Positions 26,654-51,141 of a stretch of DNA of 59,203 nt are shown piece by piece. The notes below the pieces were generated by a model. The model was given only the letters and a program-made list of their open reading frames with translations. It searched no databases and had not been told where the DNA came from. Numbering within the stretch: position 1 is the first letter of the stretch; every line of letters starts with the position of its first letter. The stretch comes from Snowella sp. (GTDB lineage: Bacteria; Cyanobacteriota; Cyanobacteriia; Cyanobacteriales; Microcystaceae). The stretch is from positions 68,247 to 127,449 of the forward strand of contig QBMS01000001.1 of the NCBI GenBank assembly GCA_003249095.1. Reading direction: 5' to 3'. The translations under genes and the position numbers were made by a program.

Positions 26654-28942
26654 TTAGTTAGAAATAGGCAAAAAGAGCGTGTTTTCAATTTCAGCACGAA
26701 CTCCGCGATCGATGACGGCTTCCCGACCGAGACATTCCATTAATAAAATATTGGCAGTGTGATATTGCTCTAACAAATCTTTTTGTTGCCAATTAAATTG
26801 CCAGTCGTGGCCAATATTGCGATGGGTGATCATAATTTGGCGTAATTGCTCTGCCCACGCTTTACCATTTTCTTTCTGCCATTGTTTAAATGGTTCTTTG
26901 TTTTGAGGATCGGGACGTTCAGCGAATAAACTCTGTAGTTCTTCTTTTAATAAAATCTGTGAGGGGGGGATTTTATTGAGGAGATTGGTGAATTTTTGGT
27001 CGAGTGAGAGTGAGAGTAAGAGGAAGAGGTCAAGGTCGAGGTAGAGACAGAGGGAGAATTCGAGGTAGAGATGAAGGTCGAGGTAGTCGAGGCCGAGGTC
27101 GAGTTGGAATTCGAGGTAGAGGTAGAGGTGGCGTATTTTGGGCTGATTTGATTTAATATAAGCTAAAAAAGAGAATCTTTCAGTAATTTGTTCAATATCC
27201 TTAGCTGTATATTCTTCTTCTAAAGAATCGGCTTTAGCTTTTAACCATTGCAAATATTCTTGTAGCCGTTCATCTTCTGCTAAGAGTTGATCCACTGCTT
27301 GCTTCATTAACTGAATTAATTCGGTTGCATCTTCTAGCATTTCTACTGCTAACAAAATCACCTCTCGCCAGCGTTTTTCGGTGAGATGACTGACTAATTC
27401 CCTGAGAGTTTCCGTTGTTGGATTTAAGGTTAATTTTCTGGTTGCAAAATATTCCTGAAAGGTTAAATGGGAAAAAGAATAAATACCCTTAGCCCTAGTC
27501 ACTAATAGCCCATGATTAGCTTCAATAGACCACAAAACATCTTCACTATCCAAGCGCAAAGCTTCGGGATCACTTTTAGCATCAGGTAAATTTTCAATAA
27601 ACTGAGCAATATAGGTTTCTGCTACTTTTTGTTTAAAGAAATAATTTCCCTGCCGAAAGGTTTCTAGGGCAATTAAACTTAACAGATCTTCCTTCCGTTT
27701 AGCCGACAAATTTTTATAAAGTTGATCCCGTTCAATCCCTCGCTTACCGTCCCATCTTTTTAATAAAATATCTACTCCTTCTTCGTATAATTCTGCTCGA
27801 TTCTGGGGAAAATTAGTTAATTCTCCAAAAACTAAACATAACAGCGTTAATAAAAGCGGACTACTTGCTAATTCTTGAATGGGTTCATTGTCAGCCAATT
27901 TTTCAATAAATTTTTCTGCCTTAACGGGATTTTTTGATTGGAACCATTTCGTCACAAAAACCTCTATTTGCTCTTGATCAAAATCCGCCACTTCCACTTC
28001 TCGAAAATCTTGAAACAAATATTCCTTAGCTGCAATTCGACAAGTTATCAAAAATTGATTTTTGCCATAGTGTAAATGATCGGCTAATTGCTGAATTTGG
28101 GAAATAACGCGATGGCTATCTTTTTCTAAAACTTCATCCAATCCATCTAACAAAATTAAGGCTTTCCCATGATTTAAAAGCTTTTCTATGATTTCAGCTT
28201 TAACGCCCGCATCTACAAATTTATGATTAATATAGTGAAGCAATTCAGGTTTACCTGGCTTTTCTGCAAATTCCTTTAAAGACAGAAAAATAGGAAAACA
28301 ATCCGTTCCCAATCGTTCCGCCAAACATTCCATTGCAATATATTTTAAAAAAGTGGTTTTTCCTGCTCCAGGTTTCCCCCAAATCATTAACTTGCGATGA
28401 CCTTGAACCGCCTCTAATCCCGATACTCTTTTTTGTGCTTTACCCCATCCCAACCGCTCAAAATCTGCTAACTTACTATTGAACAAACAATGTAAATCTT
28501 CTAAACCCAAACGTTGCTTGGCAGTAAGATTTTCCAGAATATTAACATCCGTATAAATTTCCCCTAACGCGATGTCCTGCTCCATATCCAAAACCCGCAT
28601 CTTTCCACATTCTTTTTTAACCATTGGTTCAATGCGTTGACGAATATCCGCGATTAAATCCTTAATTTCTAGGTCATCTTCTGTGGATAATTCGGCTTCT
28701 TTAACAATCATTTCTTGCCAATCCAAACCTAATTCCTGACAGATTGCCAGAAAATAATCCTCATCAATGGGATCACCTTTGTATAAATGCTGTCCTATCG
28801 TTTGTCGCACACAACCGACTCGACCTGCTAGAAGATCCTGTGACCACTTTTTACGTTTTATTGCTCTTTTAATTGCCTGAATTCCTACCGAAGAAGCCTG
28901 TAATGTGCGCCGTCCCATCTTGTTTACCATTTGTAAGGTCAA
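26654..28942 (-). CDS. HTH-NACHT NTPase with a low-complexity C-terminal tract (candidate defence STAND protein)
   Basis: This 762-residue protein has an N-terminal XRE-like helix-turn-helix (about residues 20-80; KKWSQDLLAGRVGCVRQTIGQHL), a linker to about 180, and a NACHT NTPase domain with Walker A GKPGAGKTT (189-197), Walker B ALILLDGLDE (261-270), and later FLITCR, SPLLLTLLC and FSHLTFQEYFATRKL motifs that match cyanobacterial NACHT proteins. The C-terminal part (about residues 605-649) is an alternating Leu/Asp/Tyr tract, encoded by a GAGGTA/GAGGTC-like repeat. bNACHT proteins are reported anti-phage STAND NTPases, which makes a defence role plausible, but the HTH could also mean transcription control. 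Confidence 0.82.
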   Translation of the reverse strand: MTLQMVNKMGRRTLQASSVGIQAIKRAIKRKKWSQDLLAGRVGCVRQTIGQHLYKGDPIDEDYFLAICQELGLDWQEMIVKEAELSTEDDLEIKDLIADIRQRIEPMVKKECGKMRVLDMEQDIALGEIYTDVNILENLTAKQRLGLEDLHCLFNSKLADFERLGWGKAQKRVSGLEAVQGHRKLMIWGKPGAGKTTFLKYIAMECLAERLGTDCFPIFLSLKEFAEKPGKPELLHYINHKFVDAGVKAEIIEKLLNHGKALILLDGLDEVLEKDSHRVISQIQQLADHLHYGKNQFLITCRIAAKEYLFQDFREVEVADFDQEQIEVFVTKWFQSKNPVKAEKFIEKLADNEPIQELASSPLLLTLLCLVFGELTNFPQNRAELYEEGVDILLKRWDGKRGIERDQLYKNLSAKRKEDLLSLIALETFRQGNYFFKQKVAETYIAQFIENLPDAKSDPEALRLDSEDVLWSIEANHGLLVTRAKGIYSFSHLTFQEYFATRKLTLNPTTETLRELVSHLTEKRWREVILLAVEMLEDATELIQLMKQAVDQLLAEDERLQEYLQWLKAKADSLEEEYTAKDIEQITERFSFLAYIKSNQPKIRHLYLYLEFQLDLGLDYLDLHLYLEFSLCLYLDLDLFLLLSLSLDQKFTNLLNKIPPSQILLKEELQSLFAERPDPQNKEPFKQWQKENGKAWAEQLRQIMITHRNIGHDWQFNWQQKDLLEQYHTANILLMECLGREAVIDRGVRAEIENTLFLPISN
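26999..27131. repeat. Hexanucleotide-like simple repeat in the NACHT gene
   Basis: On the plus strand the stretch is built from gaggta/gaggtc/gagagt units. It encodes the alternating Leu with Asp, Tyr, Glu or Phe run of the NACHT protein. Units of six bases keep the frame, so the length may vary between strains. Confidence 0.75.
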
Positions 28943-29098: not shown

Positions 29099-29287
29099 AT
29101 GCAAACTCAACTCAAACAACCTCAAACTCAAGCCATCCAAACTCAAGCTATCCAAACTCAACCGATAAAAATTACAATTGATGTACCCAACTTTGATGCT
29201 AATGGCCCCGTCGGCATTATTATTGCGATCGCAGTTCTCGTTAAAGTCTTAGTCGGTAATCAAACAACCCGTTCTCATAAACCCTAA
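29099..29287 (+). CDS. Small Gln-rich membrane protein next to the NACHT gene
   Basis: A 62-residue protein starting at ATG 29099. The N-terminal half is a tandem TQAIQTQ repeat, followed by a hydrophobic segment (GPVGIIIAIAVLVKVLVG) that can form one membrane helix, and a short basic tail. It is divergent from the NACHT gene with a shared 156-bp upstream region. There is no recognised family. Coding is supported by composition and the membrane segment only; it could be a small membrane partner of the NACHT protein or unrelated. Confidence 0.5.
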   Translation: MQTQLKQPQTQAIQTQAIQTQPIKITIDVPNFDANGPVGIIIAIAVLVKVLVGNQTTRSHKP

Positions 29288-29356: not shown

Positions 29357-30763
29357 TTAACGAAAAGAACCAATAATATCTCGAACCACAATTTTTTGAG
29401 TTGCTGAATAACCCGAAAAAGTGCGCGTTGCCACAATCTCTACTTCCACTCCTAAACCTGACTTGAGATACTCTTCCTCAATCGGTAATTGACCTAAATC
29501 TAAGGTAAAGCGATCGCCATTTAACTTGACCAATTCATCGGGAATAACCCCCGAATACTTCGTTAAATAATCGGAAACAGGACGAAAACGGGGATCGGAA
29601 CGAGTGATATTATATTTGACCTGAAATTTGGTTGCAATGAGGTTAGATTGATTTGCCTTATCCACTAGGACTAACTTGAGATTTCTACCATTTCCCGTGA
29701 GAGAACTCTCTTCTAAACGAGTCACATCACCCAATAAAATGGCATTGTAAACCAGAAATTCCGTTACCTCATTGCGTTTCTGAGTCGTTCCCTCAATCCA
29801 AACATCCGAGGGCAAACCGACCTTAATTTCCTGTTGATCATCCAGACTCAAGGTGAAATTCTTATCCGCAAAACGATTAAAAGGTTGAGGCGCATTCCAA
29901 ATCAGGAGAAAAGAACGTTCGAGTCTTTCCGTCAGAGCCTCATACTGATCCTCAATCACCGACCCAGGAGCTAACAAGTCCCTAGCACCCTGGCGAGTTT
30001 CCCAACGATTACGGGATAAAACCACACCCTGGTCTTTCATCATTGCCATCGTCACCGAAGCGGTCGGTTTGTCCGGCTCTAGGGGTTTATTGAGATTCAG
30101 CAGGGTTAATCGCCCTGGAAAGCCGTCTCGCCCCGTTAGCCCTGGGGTTCCCTTCACACCGTTGCGACCGTTATAACAGCGAAATTCTTTGGTAGTACAG
30201 CGATAATCCGAGGCTCCGCGATCGCCCGAACAGGTTTCCACCGTCCAGTAAGGTTTCGCGCAATTACAGCCTTCACCCGCATTACCACCTGGCCCCATCT
30301 GTCCCCCTTTTCCGCCCGCCGAATTGACCACAATTTGCCGTAGTTGGGCAGGATTCGTGGAATAAATACTAATTGATCCGCCATTTCCCCCGTCACCGCC
30401 GTTACCGCCATTTCCCCCATTTCCCCCATCGGGAGCCACCAGATCCGTACTGACATTAGTCGGTTGAGTTCCACAATTAGCTGCGATCGCATCTCCGCCA
30501 GGTTTACCATCTTCACCGTTTTTTCCCGCTAAATTTAAAGTCAAAGGCGTTCCATCGGCAAAAATCGTTAAATTATCACTATTGGCTCCATTCGCTCCAT
30601 TTTCTCCCGTTTTACCCAATTGCCCATTCGTCCCAAAAGATTGCCTATTCGTACCTTGGGCAATCCACGAACAATCCTGAGAACTCGGAAGGGGAGCCGC
30701 CGAAATGCCCTGGGGGAAAATCAATAGACTCAAAAAAACTGACAGAGGGGCAAAACGACGCAT
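29357..30763 (-). CDS. Exported collagen-like Gly-rich protein
   Basis: About 468 residues from ATG 30763 (ATG 30778 is also in frame). A signal peptide (RRFAPLSVFLSLLIFPQGISAAP) is followed by several Gly-X-Y or Gly-Gly-Asn tracts: LGKTGENGANGAN, NGEDGKPGGD, GGNGGNGGNGGDGGNGG, and GVKGTPGLTGRDGFPG. Cys residues and the remainder form a beta-rich C-terminal domain of about 250 residues (LLNLNKPLEPDKPTASV to IGSFR). The function is not known; it is probably a cell-surface or extracellular structural protein. It ends about 70 bp from the small membrane protein gene. Confidence 0.75.
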   Translation of the reverse strand: MRRFAPLSVFLSLLIFPQGISAAPLPSSQDCSWIAQGTNRQSFGTNGQLGKTGENGANGANSDNLTIFADGTPLTLNLAGKNGEDGKPGGDAIAANCGTQPTNVSTDLVAPDGGNGGNGGNGGDGGNGGSISIYSTNPAQLRQIVVNSAGGKGGQMGPGGNAGEGCNCAKPYWTVETCSGDRGASDYRCTTKEFRCYNGRNGVKGTPGLTGRDGFPGRLTLLNLNKPLEPDKPTASVTMAMMKDQGVVLSRNRWETRQGARDLLAPGSVIEDQYEALTERLERSFLLIWNAPQPFNRFADKNFTLSLDDQQEIKVGLPSDVWIEGTTQKRNEVTEFLVYNAILLGDVTRLEESSLTGNGRNLKLVLVDKANQSNLIATKFQVKYNITRSDPRFRPVSDYLTKYSGVIPDELVKLNGDRFTLDLGQLPIEEEYLKSGLGVEVEIVATRTFSGYSATQKIVVRDIIGSFR

Positions 30764-30976
30764 AACAAGAAAAATCAATAAAATAGAAAACTTTTGAAGA
30801 CATTTTCAAGATCTAGTTCCTAGACCTATTTTTGTAACTATTTGTTTCCCGATTAAAAAAGCCTGTGGCCATTTCATAAACTTTTTGAAGTTTTTTACAA
30901 CCTCTTGCTTTCCAGATGTCCCCCACAGTCCTAAACTTGACTTGAGAGGTGTTATAGGCAGTCGTGAGGTCTTATT

Positions 30977-48708: not shown

Positions 48709-51141
48709 TTAACTATGCAATGCTTCCCGTAGGCTCTGCAATAGTTGGGGATTGGTTGCAATTCTTTCTAGCAACATTAAATTTTTTTCTGTATCTGGAT
48801 AGGGAAGGTTTGCTTGTTGAGCAATGGCTTTTAGAATAGTAAATAATGTATCTGAATCGCAATTCAGAAGGACTTGTACGTTAAACATCTTTGTTGCCAA
48901 TAGAGAGTCTTGAGTATCGGGGTGGTGATCGCCTAATGCGTTTTGATAAATGGTTAAGGCTCGTTGAGATAGATTTTTTGCGTCTGCATAATTACCTTGG
49001 GCGTTATAAAATAACGCTAAATTGTTGAGACTGGTGGCAACGTCGGGATGATTTTCTCCTAATTGCTTTTCCTTGATAGAAAGCGATCGCCGATAGAGAG
49101 GTTCGGCTTCTTCGTCTTTCCCTTGGGCATTGTAAAGTAAAGCCAGATTGTTGAGACTAGTGGCAATGTCGGGATGATTTTCTGCTAATTGGTTTTCATA
49201 GATAGAAAGCGATCTCCAATAAAGAGGTTCCGCATCCTTGTATTTCCCTTGAGAATAGTAAAGTAACGCTAAGTTGTTGAGACTGGTAGCAACATCGGGA
49301 TGATTTTCTCCTAATTGCTTTTCCCTGATAGAAAGCGATCGCAAATAGAGAGGTTCCGCTTCGTTGTATTTTCCTTGAGTACGGTAAAGCTCTGCCAGAT
49401 TGTTGAGAGCGGCGGCAAAGTTGGGATGATTTTCTGCTAATTGCTTTTCCCAGATAGAAAGCGATCGCAGATAGAGAGGTTCCGCTTCGTCGTATTTCCC
49501 CTGGAAATTGTAAAGACTTGCCAGATTGTTGAGACTGGTGGCAACGTCGGGATGATTTTCTCCTAATTGCTTTTCCCTGATAGAAAGCGATCGCAGATAG
49601 AGAGGTTCAGTTTCGTCGTATTTCCCTTGGGAATGGTAAAGTGCTGCCAGATTGTTGAGACTGTTGGCAAAGTCGGGATGATTTTCTCCTAATTGGTTTT
49701 CATAGATAGAAAGTGATCGCAGATAGAGAGGTTCAGCTTCGTCATATTTCCCTTGGGAATAGTAAAGAAATGCTAATCCATTTAGGCTAAAGGCAAATTG
49801 AACATCTTCATTCCCCTCGCACCAATCAATCATCTTTTTTAAATGAGGTTCAATCAGATTAAATACTGCTAGGGTCGTTGATTGCTCGACCGCATCAGCA
49901 ACCCTCACAAATAGATCACAATATGCCTGTTTAATCTCACTGTATTGAGGATGCTTTTTAAATTGTTCTCCTAAATAATCCCTAATCAGAGGATGCAAAT
50001 CATAAATATCCGTCTCCACCGTCAGAACAAGGTGCAGTTTCCTGAGAGATTTTAGCCACTTATCTTTCAGATTATCCTCACTAAAAGATTCACCCTGTAA
50101 CTTTGCATAGATACCTCTCACAAAACCCCAATAAATCGCCGCCTCTGCAAATGACCCCAACACACAAGCGAGATATTTTGCCTCTGGTGTCAACTCATCC
50201 CAACTCAAATCAAAAGCCGCTTGAATTCCCCTAGTCGCTGCGATCGCCATCGGCACTTCTTCGGGTGACAAAGCAGGATGTTTAACCTTTTCCTTTAACT
50301 TATCCCCCATCGCGGCCAAAGAAAGGGATTGATAATCCTCATCCTCCAAGTAATAACCCACCAATTCCAACGCCAAGGGCAAATAGCCCAACTCCTCACA
50401 AAGTCTTTCTGCGGCGGGTGTTTCTCTTGCCACTCTTTCTTCGCCAATAATCGAAGCTAATAATTCTACTGCCGATTCAGGTAATAACACTTTTAGAGGC
50501 AATTCTTCCGCAATGCGTTGATCGGGTGTATCCCGTGAAGTGATCAGTAACCGCAATGTCCCTAAATCCGAAAGCGGTAAATATTGTTTAAAATTTTTAG
50601 CTAAACCAGATACATCATCCAGAATCAATAACACCGCTTCGGTCTGGGTTTTCCAGGCTTGCCAACACTGAGTTATTTTCTGGGTATCCGATAAACCATC
50701 CGCTATCTGTGCCTGAAAATGATACTGTGTCACGGCCACAATATCCGCCGCAATATTCTCACGACTCCGTACATCAACATAAAATACTCCTCCCGAAAAA
50801 TGCGCCTGGCAATCATCGCTTTTGACATACTCCCGCACTAATTCCGTTTTACCTACTCCTCCCATTCCCGACACCACACAGACGTTCTTCTTGGTTTGCA
50901 ATAACTCATGCAGTCTGGTTAACTCTGTTTCCCGACCAATCAATCCTCCCTTGTCTTCCTCACGGGGTTGCGGTGGTACAAAAGGATTTCCTGCTAGAGA
51001 AGCTTTTCCCGAACTACCATAGTTAATATTGACAGTACCAGAATTATCTTTAACAAAGGGAGCTTTATTATCTGTAAAAAGATTCTGCTCTGCCTTACCC
51101 GTCACATTCCAAGACTCAAAAGCAGGTGTTTCGTTGAACAT
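48709..51141 (-). CDS. NB-ARC/TPR STAND NTPase with N-terminal shared motif (candidate NLR-like receptor)
   Basis: This 810-residue protein has an N-terminal motif (residues 11-42, with KAEQN and FTDNKAP cores) that is nearly the same as the C-terminus of the small protein encoded just upstream. Then follows an NB-ARC domain: Walker A GMGGVGKT (92-99), LLILDDV (171-177), ITSRD (200-204), LGYLPLALEL (251-260), and a DLHPLIRDYL segment (about 381-390). The C-terminus is seven 42-residue TPR units (about 451-744), of kinesin light-chain type, then a helical end. In known systems such proteins sense a ligand with the TPR part and trigger a partner. Confidence 0.85.
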   Translation of the reverse strand: MFNETPAFESWNVTGKAEQNLFTDNKAPFVKDNSGTVNINYGSSGKASLAGNPFVPPQPREEDKGGLIGRETELTRLHELLQTKKNVCVVSGMGGVGKTELVREYVKSDDCQAHFSGGVFYVDVRSRENIAADIVAVTQYHFQAQIADGLSDTQKITQCWQAWKTQTEAVLLILDDVSGLAKNFKQYLPLSDLGTLRLLITSRDTPDQRIAEELPLKVLLPESAVELLASIIGEERVARETPAAERLCEELGYLPLALELVGYYLEDEDYQSLSLAAMGDKLKEKVKHPALSPEEVPMAIAATRGIQAAFDLSWDELTPEAKYLACVLGSFAEAAIYWGFVRGIYAKLQGESFSEDNLKDKWLKSLRKLHLVLTVETDIYDLHPLIRDYLGEQFKKHPQYSEIKQAYCDLFVRVADAVEQSTTLAVFNLIEPHLKKMIDWCEGNEDVQFAFSLNGLAFLYYSQGKYDEAEPLYLRSLSIYENQLGENHPDFANSLNNLAALYHSQGKYDETEPLYLRSLSIREKQLGENHPDVATSLNNLASLYNFQGKYDEAEPLYLRSLSIWEKQLAENHPNFAAALNNLAELYRTQGKYNEAEPLYLRSLSIREKQLGENHPDVATSLNNLALLYYSQGKYKDAEPLYWRSLSIYENQLAENHPDIATSLNNLALLYNAQGKDEEAEPLYRRSLSIKEKQLGENHPDVATSLNNLALFYNAQGNYADAKNLSQRALTIYQNALGDHHPDTQDSLLATKMFNVQVLLNCDSDTLFTILKAIAQQANLPYPDTEKNLMLLERIATNPQLLQSLREALHS
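48910..49791. repeat. Seven tandem 126-bp TPR-encoding units
   Basis: The region encodes seven consecutive 42-residue repeats of the plan LNNLALLYxxQGKYxEAEPLYxRSLSI. Neighbouring units are very similar at the DNA level, implying recent duplication or concerted evolution, and 126 bp is 42 codons. Confidence 0.85.

What the first reader, a model, noticed from the sequence alone, without database searches (positions are those of the whole stretch)
26654..28942. HTH-NACHT protein with a repetitive Leu/Asp tail
The fusion of an XRE-like helix-turn-helix to a NACHT NTPase and the low-complexity (about 45 residue) Leu/Asp/Tyr tract are unusual. The tract is made by a GAGGTA/GAGGTC-like simple repeat and could vary quickly, which suits a sensor surface. 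It could equally be neutral repeat expansion.
Basis: partly seen in the sequence, partly recalled or inferred. Interest (0 to 1): 0.6.

Follow-up and report, generated by a model that had tools for sequence, protein, structure and literature searches.

The report
Fast-changing dipeptide tract in NACHT sensor
A cyanobacterial relative of animal and plant immune sensors carries a short stretch built from six-letter DNA repeats that differs sharply even between closely related copies of the gene, which suggests a self-renewing recognition surface in a bacterial immune-like protein.

Summary
The gene (26654-28942, minus strand) encodes an N-terminal helix-turn-helix, a NACHT NTPase, an alternating Leu-x tract (residues 605-647) and then a C-terminal NCH2 domain, so the tract is internal, not a tail.

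In 23 of 119 related sequences, this one included, the same place holds a 6-nt-periodic dipeptide tract. A second NACHT-NCH2 clade, with two copies in this genome, holds Ala-x tracts there. In the seven pairs of repetitive tracts whose flanks are over 90% identical (90.7-95.0%), tracts are 22-64% identical. Codon positions 1 and 2 vary while position 3 stays mostly C (94% of pyrimidine-ending codons in Leu-type tracts, about 38% in the rest of those genes). In four same-genus orthologs the tract and an 11-codon NCH2 patch have dN above dS; the N-terminal/NACHT part has dN/dS 0.10-0.25.

Best reading: the recognition region of a NACHT immune-like sensor, renewed by hexamer turnover under diversifying selection, analogous to fungal NLR repeats but with a two-residue unit. 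Sensing, ligand and phage defence are inferred. Neutral turnover in a tolerant helical insert remains possible. No diversity-generating retroelement template was found, but only held DNA could be scanned fully.

The parts
26654..28942 (-). HTH-NACHT-tract-NCH2 protein gene (762 aa from TTG 28942; ATG at 28930 is the likelier start)
   Evidence: ORF; start conserved in the G049 ortholog
28709..28891 (-). N-terminal Cro/C1-like helix-turn-helix, residues 18-78
   Evidence: five helices, pLDDT 75-90; HTH_3 E 0.026 here (under cut-off), 7e-08 in homolog L009
27935..28390 (-). NACHT NTPase, residues 185-336, with Walker A (189-197) and Walker B (262-271)
   Evidence: PF05729 E 6.9e-17; motif positions
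27143..27925 (-). helical region after NACHT, residues about 340-600
   Evidence: AlphaFold2 helices, partly low confidence; conserved in alignment A1
27002..27130 (-). hypervariable Leu-x dipeptide tract, residues 605-647, made of hexamers with CTC alternating with a variable codon (GAGGTA/GAGGTC-like on the + strand)
   Evidence: differs in homologs
26666..26950 (-). NCH2 domain (NACHT C-terminal helical domain 2), residues 665-759
   Evidence: PF22727 E 2e-32
29099..29287 (+). divergent 62-aa ORF with one hydrophobic stretch; its last 23 residues are identical in the G049 ortholog locus; possible partner, very uncertain

Best explanation
This is a cyanobacterial NACHT (STAND) sensor-type protein: N-terminal DNA-binding-like HTH, NTPase switch, and a C-terminal helical sensor made of a hypervariable tract plus NCH2. 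Shown: the tract is a run of 6-nt units in which one codon is nearly constant (Leu CTC; mostly Ala GCC or GCT in the sister clade) and the other varies mainly at codon positions 1 and 2, with its third base largely fixed; it sits at one fixed place; it differs between species far more than its flanks. Inferred: units are duplicated, lost and reshuffled in frame by slippage or recombination, which keeps synonymous sites young and uniform, while selection keeps new combinations of the variable residue. Inferred: tract and NCH2 together form the surface that recognises a foreign or modified partner; recognition triggers the NACHT switch, and the HTH (or an associated small protein) gives the output.
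For: Same place, recurrent: 23 of 119 Leu-type sequences are repetitive with C-ending bias; the label needs 11 changes on a tree built without the tract, at least 8 forced by starred branches. In the Ala-type clade 25 of the 40 tracts long enough to score are repetitive. Third base C among pyrimidine-ending tract codons: 1007 of 1073 in the 23 repetitive Leu-type tracts against 1128 of 3201 in the 96 non-repetitive ones; 1314 of 1541 in repetitive Ala-type tracts, rest of gene 0.27 on average. Within tracts, nonsynonymous exceeds synonymous difference at the variable codon in 20 of 24 Leu-set and 16 of 25 Ala-type tracts, L003 counted in both. Four g10 Ala-type orthologs, six pairs: N-terminal/NACHT part dN/dS 0.10-0.25; tract dN 0.26-0.77, dN/dS 1.7-60; NCH2 patch of 11 codons dN 0.22-0.65 with dS 0 in all six. 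Position 1+2 against position 3 differences, tract against NACHT part: p 1e-5 and 8e-5 in two disjoint pairs; q/L014, tract against rest: p 0.007. q against its 88-89% ortholog: tract 55% identical with 7 gapped codons, other regions 84-98%. Exact (GCCNNC)4GCC in 50 family genomes: 18 matches, all inside two NACHT tracts, reversed control 0.
Against: No functional test; no strain-level data on a repetitive tract. Aligning repeats is ambiguous and inflates dN in tracts, because the third base is nearly constant whatever the register. Tract dS is itself 0.01-0.38 in the g10 pairs, above the NACHT part (0.05-0.08) in five of six, so synonymous sites there are not untouched. The patch is ungapped, but its bounds were chosen after seeing the alignment, the rest of the C-terminal part also has raised dN/dS in several pairs, and q/L014 shows no excess in 650-762 (w 0.28). 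Some non-repetitive tracts change fast too (L092/L094: flanks 0.86, tract 0.25; nine Ala-type non-repetitive pairs, median ratio 2.8), and non-repetitive Ala-type tracts still have 398 of 712 C. Many relatives keep a conserved non-repetitive tract (92 pairs, median flank 0.90, tract 0.94). The own-genome paralog L002 lacks the tract. In 4 of 24 and 9 of 25 tracts synonymous difference is at least as large as nonsynonymous. The CTC version of the spaced pattern is not specific: 18 of 22 matches in NACHT tracts, but 18 in the reversed control.
Confidence: 0.53

Rival explanations
1. Neutral or nearly neutral repeat turnover in a tolerant helical insert: a seed such as LALDLALD expands by slippage, in-frame changes persist because the insert carries no specific role, and uniform codons merely reflect youth.
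For: Uniform unit-specific codons, including GCT alternating with NNC in L232 and L221, show that homogenisation by itself gives fixed third bases. Conserved relatives contain LALDLALD-like seeds. Tract-less paralog L002 and non-repetitive relatives exist. Tract dS is raised as well as dN in most g10 pairs.
Against: The constant-variable alternation recurs with different constant residues; nonsynonymous excess at the variable codon in 36 of 49 tract entries; ungapped patch in NCH2 with dN 0.22-0.65 and dS 0; L158 and L161 keep third-base C (0.87, 0.91) while alternation has decayed, the reverse of neutral decay.
Confidence: 0.28
2. Diversity-generating retroelement target: adenine-directed mutagenesis of AAC codons from a template repeat produces NNC codons.
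For: NNC codons with a fixed third base are the hallmark of such targets as I recall it; DGRs diversify proteins associated with NACHT systems in other bacteria (PMC10907252, abstract and passages).
Against: Constant alternating codon, small residue sets in many tracts and exact unit duplications are not template-like. With each tract's own copy masked, the best 60-base A-substituted fit in the window, four other own-genome loci (one around the single RVT_1 gene, L179) and three of the six G024 reverse-transcriptase matches has 12 or more forbidden mismatches, no better than reversed-tract controls (11 or more); only the two own Ala-type tracts fit each other better, 7. Own-genome spaced-CTC search: the three matches with at most 1 mismatch are in this gene.
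Confidence: 0.05
3. Old allelic diversity kept by balancing selection and spread by gene transfer, without any raised mutation rate: flanks are homogenised by recombination while tract alleles persist.
For: Genes are mobile: around the gene only about 390 bp upstream are shared between the G000 and G049 loci; 38 plasmid records hold relatives at E<=1e-60.
Against: Old alleles in genes with few C-ending codons should lose third-base C at synonymous sites; repetitive tracts have mostly not.
Confidence: 0.14

Closest known systems
Fungal NLRs of the HNWD type with high internal repeat conservation (Podospora; PMC4986451, passages)
   Same: NACHT-type sensor whose C-terminal repeats are highly alike, shuffled by concerted evolution, with positive selection at a few positions
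   Different: Fungal units are WD40, TPR or ANK repeats of tens of residues (unit length recalled); here the unit is two residues (6 nt), in bacteria, and is followed by NCH2
Bacterial NACHT anti-phage proteins (bNACHT; bNACHT25 with NCH1, PMC12169576, passages)
   Same: NACHT module with a C-terminal helical domain
   Different: N-terminal HTH rather than the nuclease of bNACHT25; NCH2 rather than NCH1 or SNaCT; no defence test here; a dipeptide tract is not mentioned in the passages I saw
DGR-diversified NACHT-associated sensors (PMC10907252, abstract and passages)
   Same: hypervariable putative sensor linked to NACHT; NNC-like codons (the codon hallmark is recalled)
   Different: no template found; periodic repeat; no lectin family in the Pfam scan
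Animal NLRs (NLRC4, NOD2)
   Same: profile match of the NACHT region to NLRC4 (E 1.9e-09); NOD2 and NLRC4 top the fold search, weakly (E 1.2e-03)
   Different: no LRR family match; the Leu-x tract has a two-residue period

Membership tests
NACHT-clade STAND NTPase | NACHT domain with Walker A and B | tested here: met
   PF05729 62.2 bits over cut-off 26.7; GKPGAGKTT and LILLDGLDEV
NACHT-clade STAND NTPase | NTP-dependent oligomerising switch | not testable with these tools
   needs biochemistry
NCH2-type bacterial NACHT proteins | C-terminal NCH2 domain | tested here: met
   PF22727 111.6 bits over cut-off 27; 6 of 6 members of A1 at E<=0.1
Characterised bNACHT/Avs/EruA anti-phage systems | match over curated cut-off to a defence model | tested here: not met
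   EruA 45 bits against cut-off 1000; best PADLOC hit PDC-S60 covers residues 180-508 only (PADLOC gives no cut-off)
Characterised bNACHT/Avs/EruA anti-phage systems | protection against phage | not testable with these tools
   no experiment
DGR target protein | template repeat with adenine-only differences | tested here: inconclusive
Concerted-repeat NLR (HNWD-like) | internally conserved repeats, number variation, positively selected positions | tested here: inconclusive
   internal conservation and length variation met; selection suggested but not by population data
Concerted-repeat NLR (HNWD-like) | WD40, TPR or ANK repeat unit | tested here: not met
   two-residue unit; no such Pfam match in q
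LRR protein | LRR family match | tested here: not met
   no LRR family in Pfam at E<=1; helices predicted

The most novel reading that the evidence does not exclude
A self-diversifying immune-like receptor in bacteria that needs no retroelement: the DNA code of the tract (hexamers with a fixed third base, never a stop codon when ending in C) is itself the diversity generator, reshuffled in frame by recombination or slippage and read by an NLR-like sensor, across two paralogous NACHT clades in cyanobacteria.
Probability: 0.3. Interest if true: 0.87.

Novelty: new variant of a known kind. Interest (0 to 1): 0.66.

Why it matters
NLR-type sensors in fungi gain variety through shuffled repeats, and some bacterial conflict systems use retroelements to vary putative sensors. 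A widespread cyanobacterial NACHT family that varies a two-residue repeat at one fixed site, with nonsynonymous sites variable and the third base largely fixed, would be a third route and a compact system in which to test how immune receptors renew recognition. My nine searches of the held paper library listed no paper whose title or abstract start describes it; listings were capped, and most subscription papers are not in that library.

Tried and rejected
Leucine-rich repeat or beta-solenoid: rejected as the leading idea, because no LRR family matched and two AlphaFold2 models, each from a 6-sequence alignment, gave helices in the tract (mean pLDDT 59.8 and 67.6; residues 605-619 are below 50 in both). 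Fold search of the C-terminal model found nothing usable (best E 1.3); the whole-protein model gave NOD2 and NLRC4 at E 1.2e-03. Phage or virus origin: 0 relatives in one viral-contig scan and none in phage records. Strain-level variation through plasmids: of three Tolypothrix strains compared, two are identical in the gene and the third differs mostly by substitutions around the tract region without a length change there; that tract is not repetitive, so the test is uninformative for repeats.

Rows dropped: one search left out 9 rows that covered under 600 query residues (L019 twice, L033 twice, L002, L042, L041, L004, L005) and L008. Searches left out two Ala-type tracts that were too short (L169, L164) and four duplicate loci (L211, L212, L213, L237). 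L003 sits in both the Leu and Ala tables; it was removed from the tree and from the recount. L068 and L082 are the same gene. Loci were chosen as best hits and same-genus sets, so proportions are not unbiased frequencies. Pairs share sequences and are not independent. The template scan showed only self-matches for some tract-locus pairs; it was repeated with the own copy masked and with controls.

Full report
What is there. The ORF at 26654-28942 on the minus strand encodes 762 residues. Pfam gives NACHT at 185-336 and NCH2 at 665-759, both well over cut-off. Walker A starts at residue 189 and Walker B at 262. The N-terminus matches helix-turn-helix models only weakly (nothing at E<=1 in the whole protein; E 0.022-0.026 for the first 90 residues), but homolog L009 matches HTH_3 at 7e-08, and the model has five helices there at pLDDT 75-90. 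The start is probably ATG at 28930, where the G049 ortholog begins. The Leu/Asp/Tyr tract, residues 605-647, lies between the helical region after NACHT and NCH2; it is not the C-terminus.

Is the tract more than chance? Yes. TRF reports a period-12 array of about 9 copies at 27019-27129, with only 59% matches. DNA identity at lag 6 is 0.63, z 5.3 against 200 codon shuffles. Leu and non-Leu alternate at 35 of 42 steps against 21.4 expected. Leu is CTC in 19 of 22 codons of residues 598-660 and in 5 of 96 elsewhere. In the own genome, a spaced CTC pattern with one mismatch occurs three times, all in this gene; with two mismatches it is not specific (9 of 22 matches here; the reversed control has 16 matches in all).

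Relatives. The family is common: 39 of 50 genomes of the family at E<=1e-60 and 168 of 291 of the order at E<=1e-100. The five named relatives from genome contigs are cyanobacteria, and 38 plasmid records hold relatives, 37 of them from cyanobacterial genera. I aligned 120 sequences. At the tract's place some hold a conserved, non-repetitive sequence (for example LALDLALDRTLAL); others hold long dipeptide runs such as LDLSLDLSRSL, RALDRALD or ASALASAL. On a tree without tract columns, 23 of 119 are repetitive and the state changes at least 11 times, 8 of them forced by starred branches (FastTree; long-branch warnings were printed, including for q with L056; changes may be gains or losses).

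A second clade. The own genome also carries L003 and L175 (57% identical over 544 residues), with alternating Ala-x tracts at the same place. Searching with L003 gives matches at E<=1e-80 in 68 of 291 order genomes, some of them members of the Leu-type clade. Of 40 tracts long enough to score, 25 are repetitive. Two of them, L221 and L232, use GCT for all or nearly all their Ala codons and NNC for nearly every variable codon, so what is fixed is the unit, not C as such.

Fixed third bases. In the 23 repetitive Leu-type tracts 1007 of 1073 pyrimidine-ending codons end in C; in the 96 non-repetitive ones 1128 of 3201. In repetitive Ala-type tracts it is 1314 of 1541, in non-repetitive ones 398 of 712. 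The mean for the rest of the repetitive genes is 0.38 (Leu) and 0.27 (Ala). Within tracts, the variable codon shows more nonsynonymous than synonymous difference in 20 of 24 and 16 of 25 tracts (L003 is in both sets). Two modes of decay exist. L170 keeps much of Ala-x but loses third-base C (0.33), while L158 and L161 keep it (0.87, 0.91) although alternation has largely gone. The second mode is not what neutral decay predicts.

Rate. Four Ala-type orthologs of genus g10 have N-terminal/NACHT parts 96-99% identical (dN/dS 0.10-0.25) while tracts are 27-60% identical, with dN 0.26-0.77 and dS 0.01-0.38. Tract dS exceeds that of the NACHT part (0.05-0.08) in five of six pairs, so the region as a whole is divergent and only its positions 1 and 2 stand out further: differences at positions 1, 2 and 3 are 17, 20, 3 and 24, 30, 16 in two disjoint pairs (p 1e-5 and 8e-5 against the NACHT part). 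An 11-codon patch of NCH2, ungapped, has dN 0.22-0.65 and dS 0 in all six pairs; I chose its limits after seeing the alignment, and the stretch between tract and patch also has dN/dS of about 0.65 to 2, undefined in one pair, on few changes. q and its ortholog L014 differ in the tract at 45% of aligned residues plus 7 gapped codons, elsewhere at 2-16% per region; there the last region shows no excess (w 0.28). Over all pairs with flanks 70-99.5% identical, tract divergence over flank divergence has median 2.3 in 32 repetitive Leu-type pairs, 0.65 in 92 non-repetitive Leu-type pairs, 2.7 in 32 repetitive Ala-type pairs and 2.8 in 9 non-repetitive Ala-type pairs; mixed pairs give 2.9 (30) and 2.8 (39). 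So fast tracts are not only the ones that are still periodic.

Where such tracts occur. In 50 family genomes the exact pattern (GCCNNC)4GCC has 18 matches, all in the NACHT tracts of L162 and L160, control 0. (CTCNNC)4CTC has 22 matches: 16 in the G049 ortholog, 2 in the L019 homolog and 4 in plain CTCATC or CTCTTC-like runs whose genes I did not examine; the reversed control had 18 matches, so this pattern alone is not specific.

How it probably works. A STAND switch with HTH at the N-terminus and a helical C-terminus suggests a sensor with a DNA-directed or partner-directed output. Both AlphaFold2 models place helices in the tract (620-634 and 637-655 or 656), at block pLDDT 57-76; residues 605-619 are below 50. 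If tract and NCH2 patch form one surface, hexamer turnover would change its side chains in steps of two residues without frame loss, and C-ending codons can never be stops. Steps shown: the architecture, the periodicity, the fixed site, fast divergence between species, the codon signature. Steps inferred: the recombination or slippage mechanism, diversifying selection, ligand sensing, defence and output.

Mobility and context. In the window the gene lies between a HlyD-type gene and, beyond the 62-aa ORF and an unassigned ORF, a gene with the glgC-type nucleotidyltransferase domains. In the 16 kb fetched around the G049 ortholog, the gene and stretches up to about 390 bp upstream match the window, apart from one 27-bp match, so it appears to move as a unit. 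Of eight plasmid relatives read, four sit beside a tyrosine recombinase (L280, L281, L282, L286), one beside a type I restriction subunit R (L287) and one near an S subunit (L285); L283 and L284 show neither. L280 and L281 are the same gene. That is weak support for a mobile, defence-like role.

Comparison. The closest working analogy is the fungal HNWD receptors, described in passages of PMC4986451: internally conserved repeats, reshuffling within and between genes, positive selection at specific codons. Bacterial NACHT proteins with NCH1 or SNaCT domains defend against phage (passages of PMC12169576). DGR-varied sensors associated with NACHT defences are proposed in PMC10907252 (abstract and passages). 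Passages of PMC7159879 on variable conflict systems mention no such tract. No match to a defence model in NCBIfam reached its cut-off, and the best PADLOC hit covers residues 180-508 only. With own copies masked, no template-like repeat in held DNA beat the reversed controls, except that the two own Ala-type tracts resemble each other. The own genome has one RVT_1 match, over cut-off.

Verdict. What was missed is that it belongs to a recurring hypervariable site in two NACHT clades with an unusual codon signature.

Noticed in passing
window 29099-29287 (+): Divergent 62-aa ORF with a hydrophobic stretch; its last 23 residues are identical in the G049 locus while the N-terminal part differs; tblastn found it at no other locus scanned.
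   Followed up: partly
L002 (G000:C133:41137-42858): Own-genome NACHT paralog, 40% identical, that lacks the tract and goes straight to an NCH2-like end.
   Followed up: partly
L179 (G000:C235:285-776): Single RVT_1-type reverse-transcriptase match of the own genome (388 aa ORF), type not determined.
   Followed up: partly
L019/L178 (G036:C3 around 2971500-2975000): 59% identical homolog split into two ORFs, apparently a broken copy, with a Leu-Tyr/Asp tract still recognisable.
   Followed up: no
window 48995-49773: 126-bp tandem array of about 6 copies inside the ORF 48709-51141 (-).
   Followed up: no
L157 (G030): Same-genus Ala-type ortholog whose tract and part of the C-terminal domain are replaced by a different, non-repetitive sequence.
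   Followed up: partly
window 30377-30429: Nine-base repeat (TCCCCCATT) in the ORF 29357-30778 (-), which encodes Gly-rich stretches and has no Pfam match.
   Followed up: no
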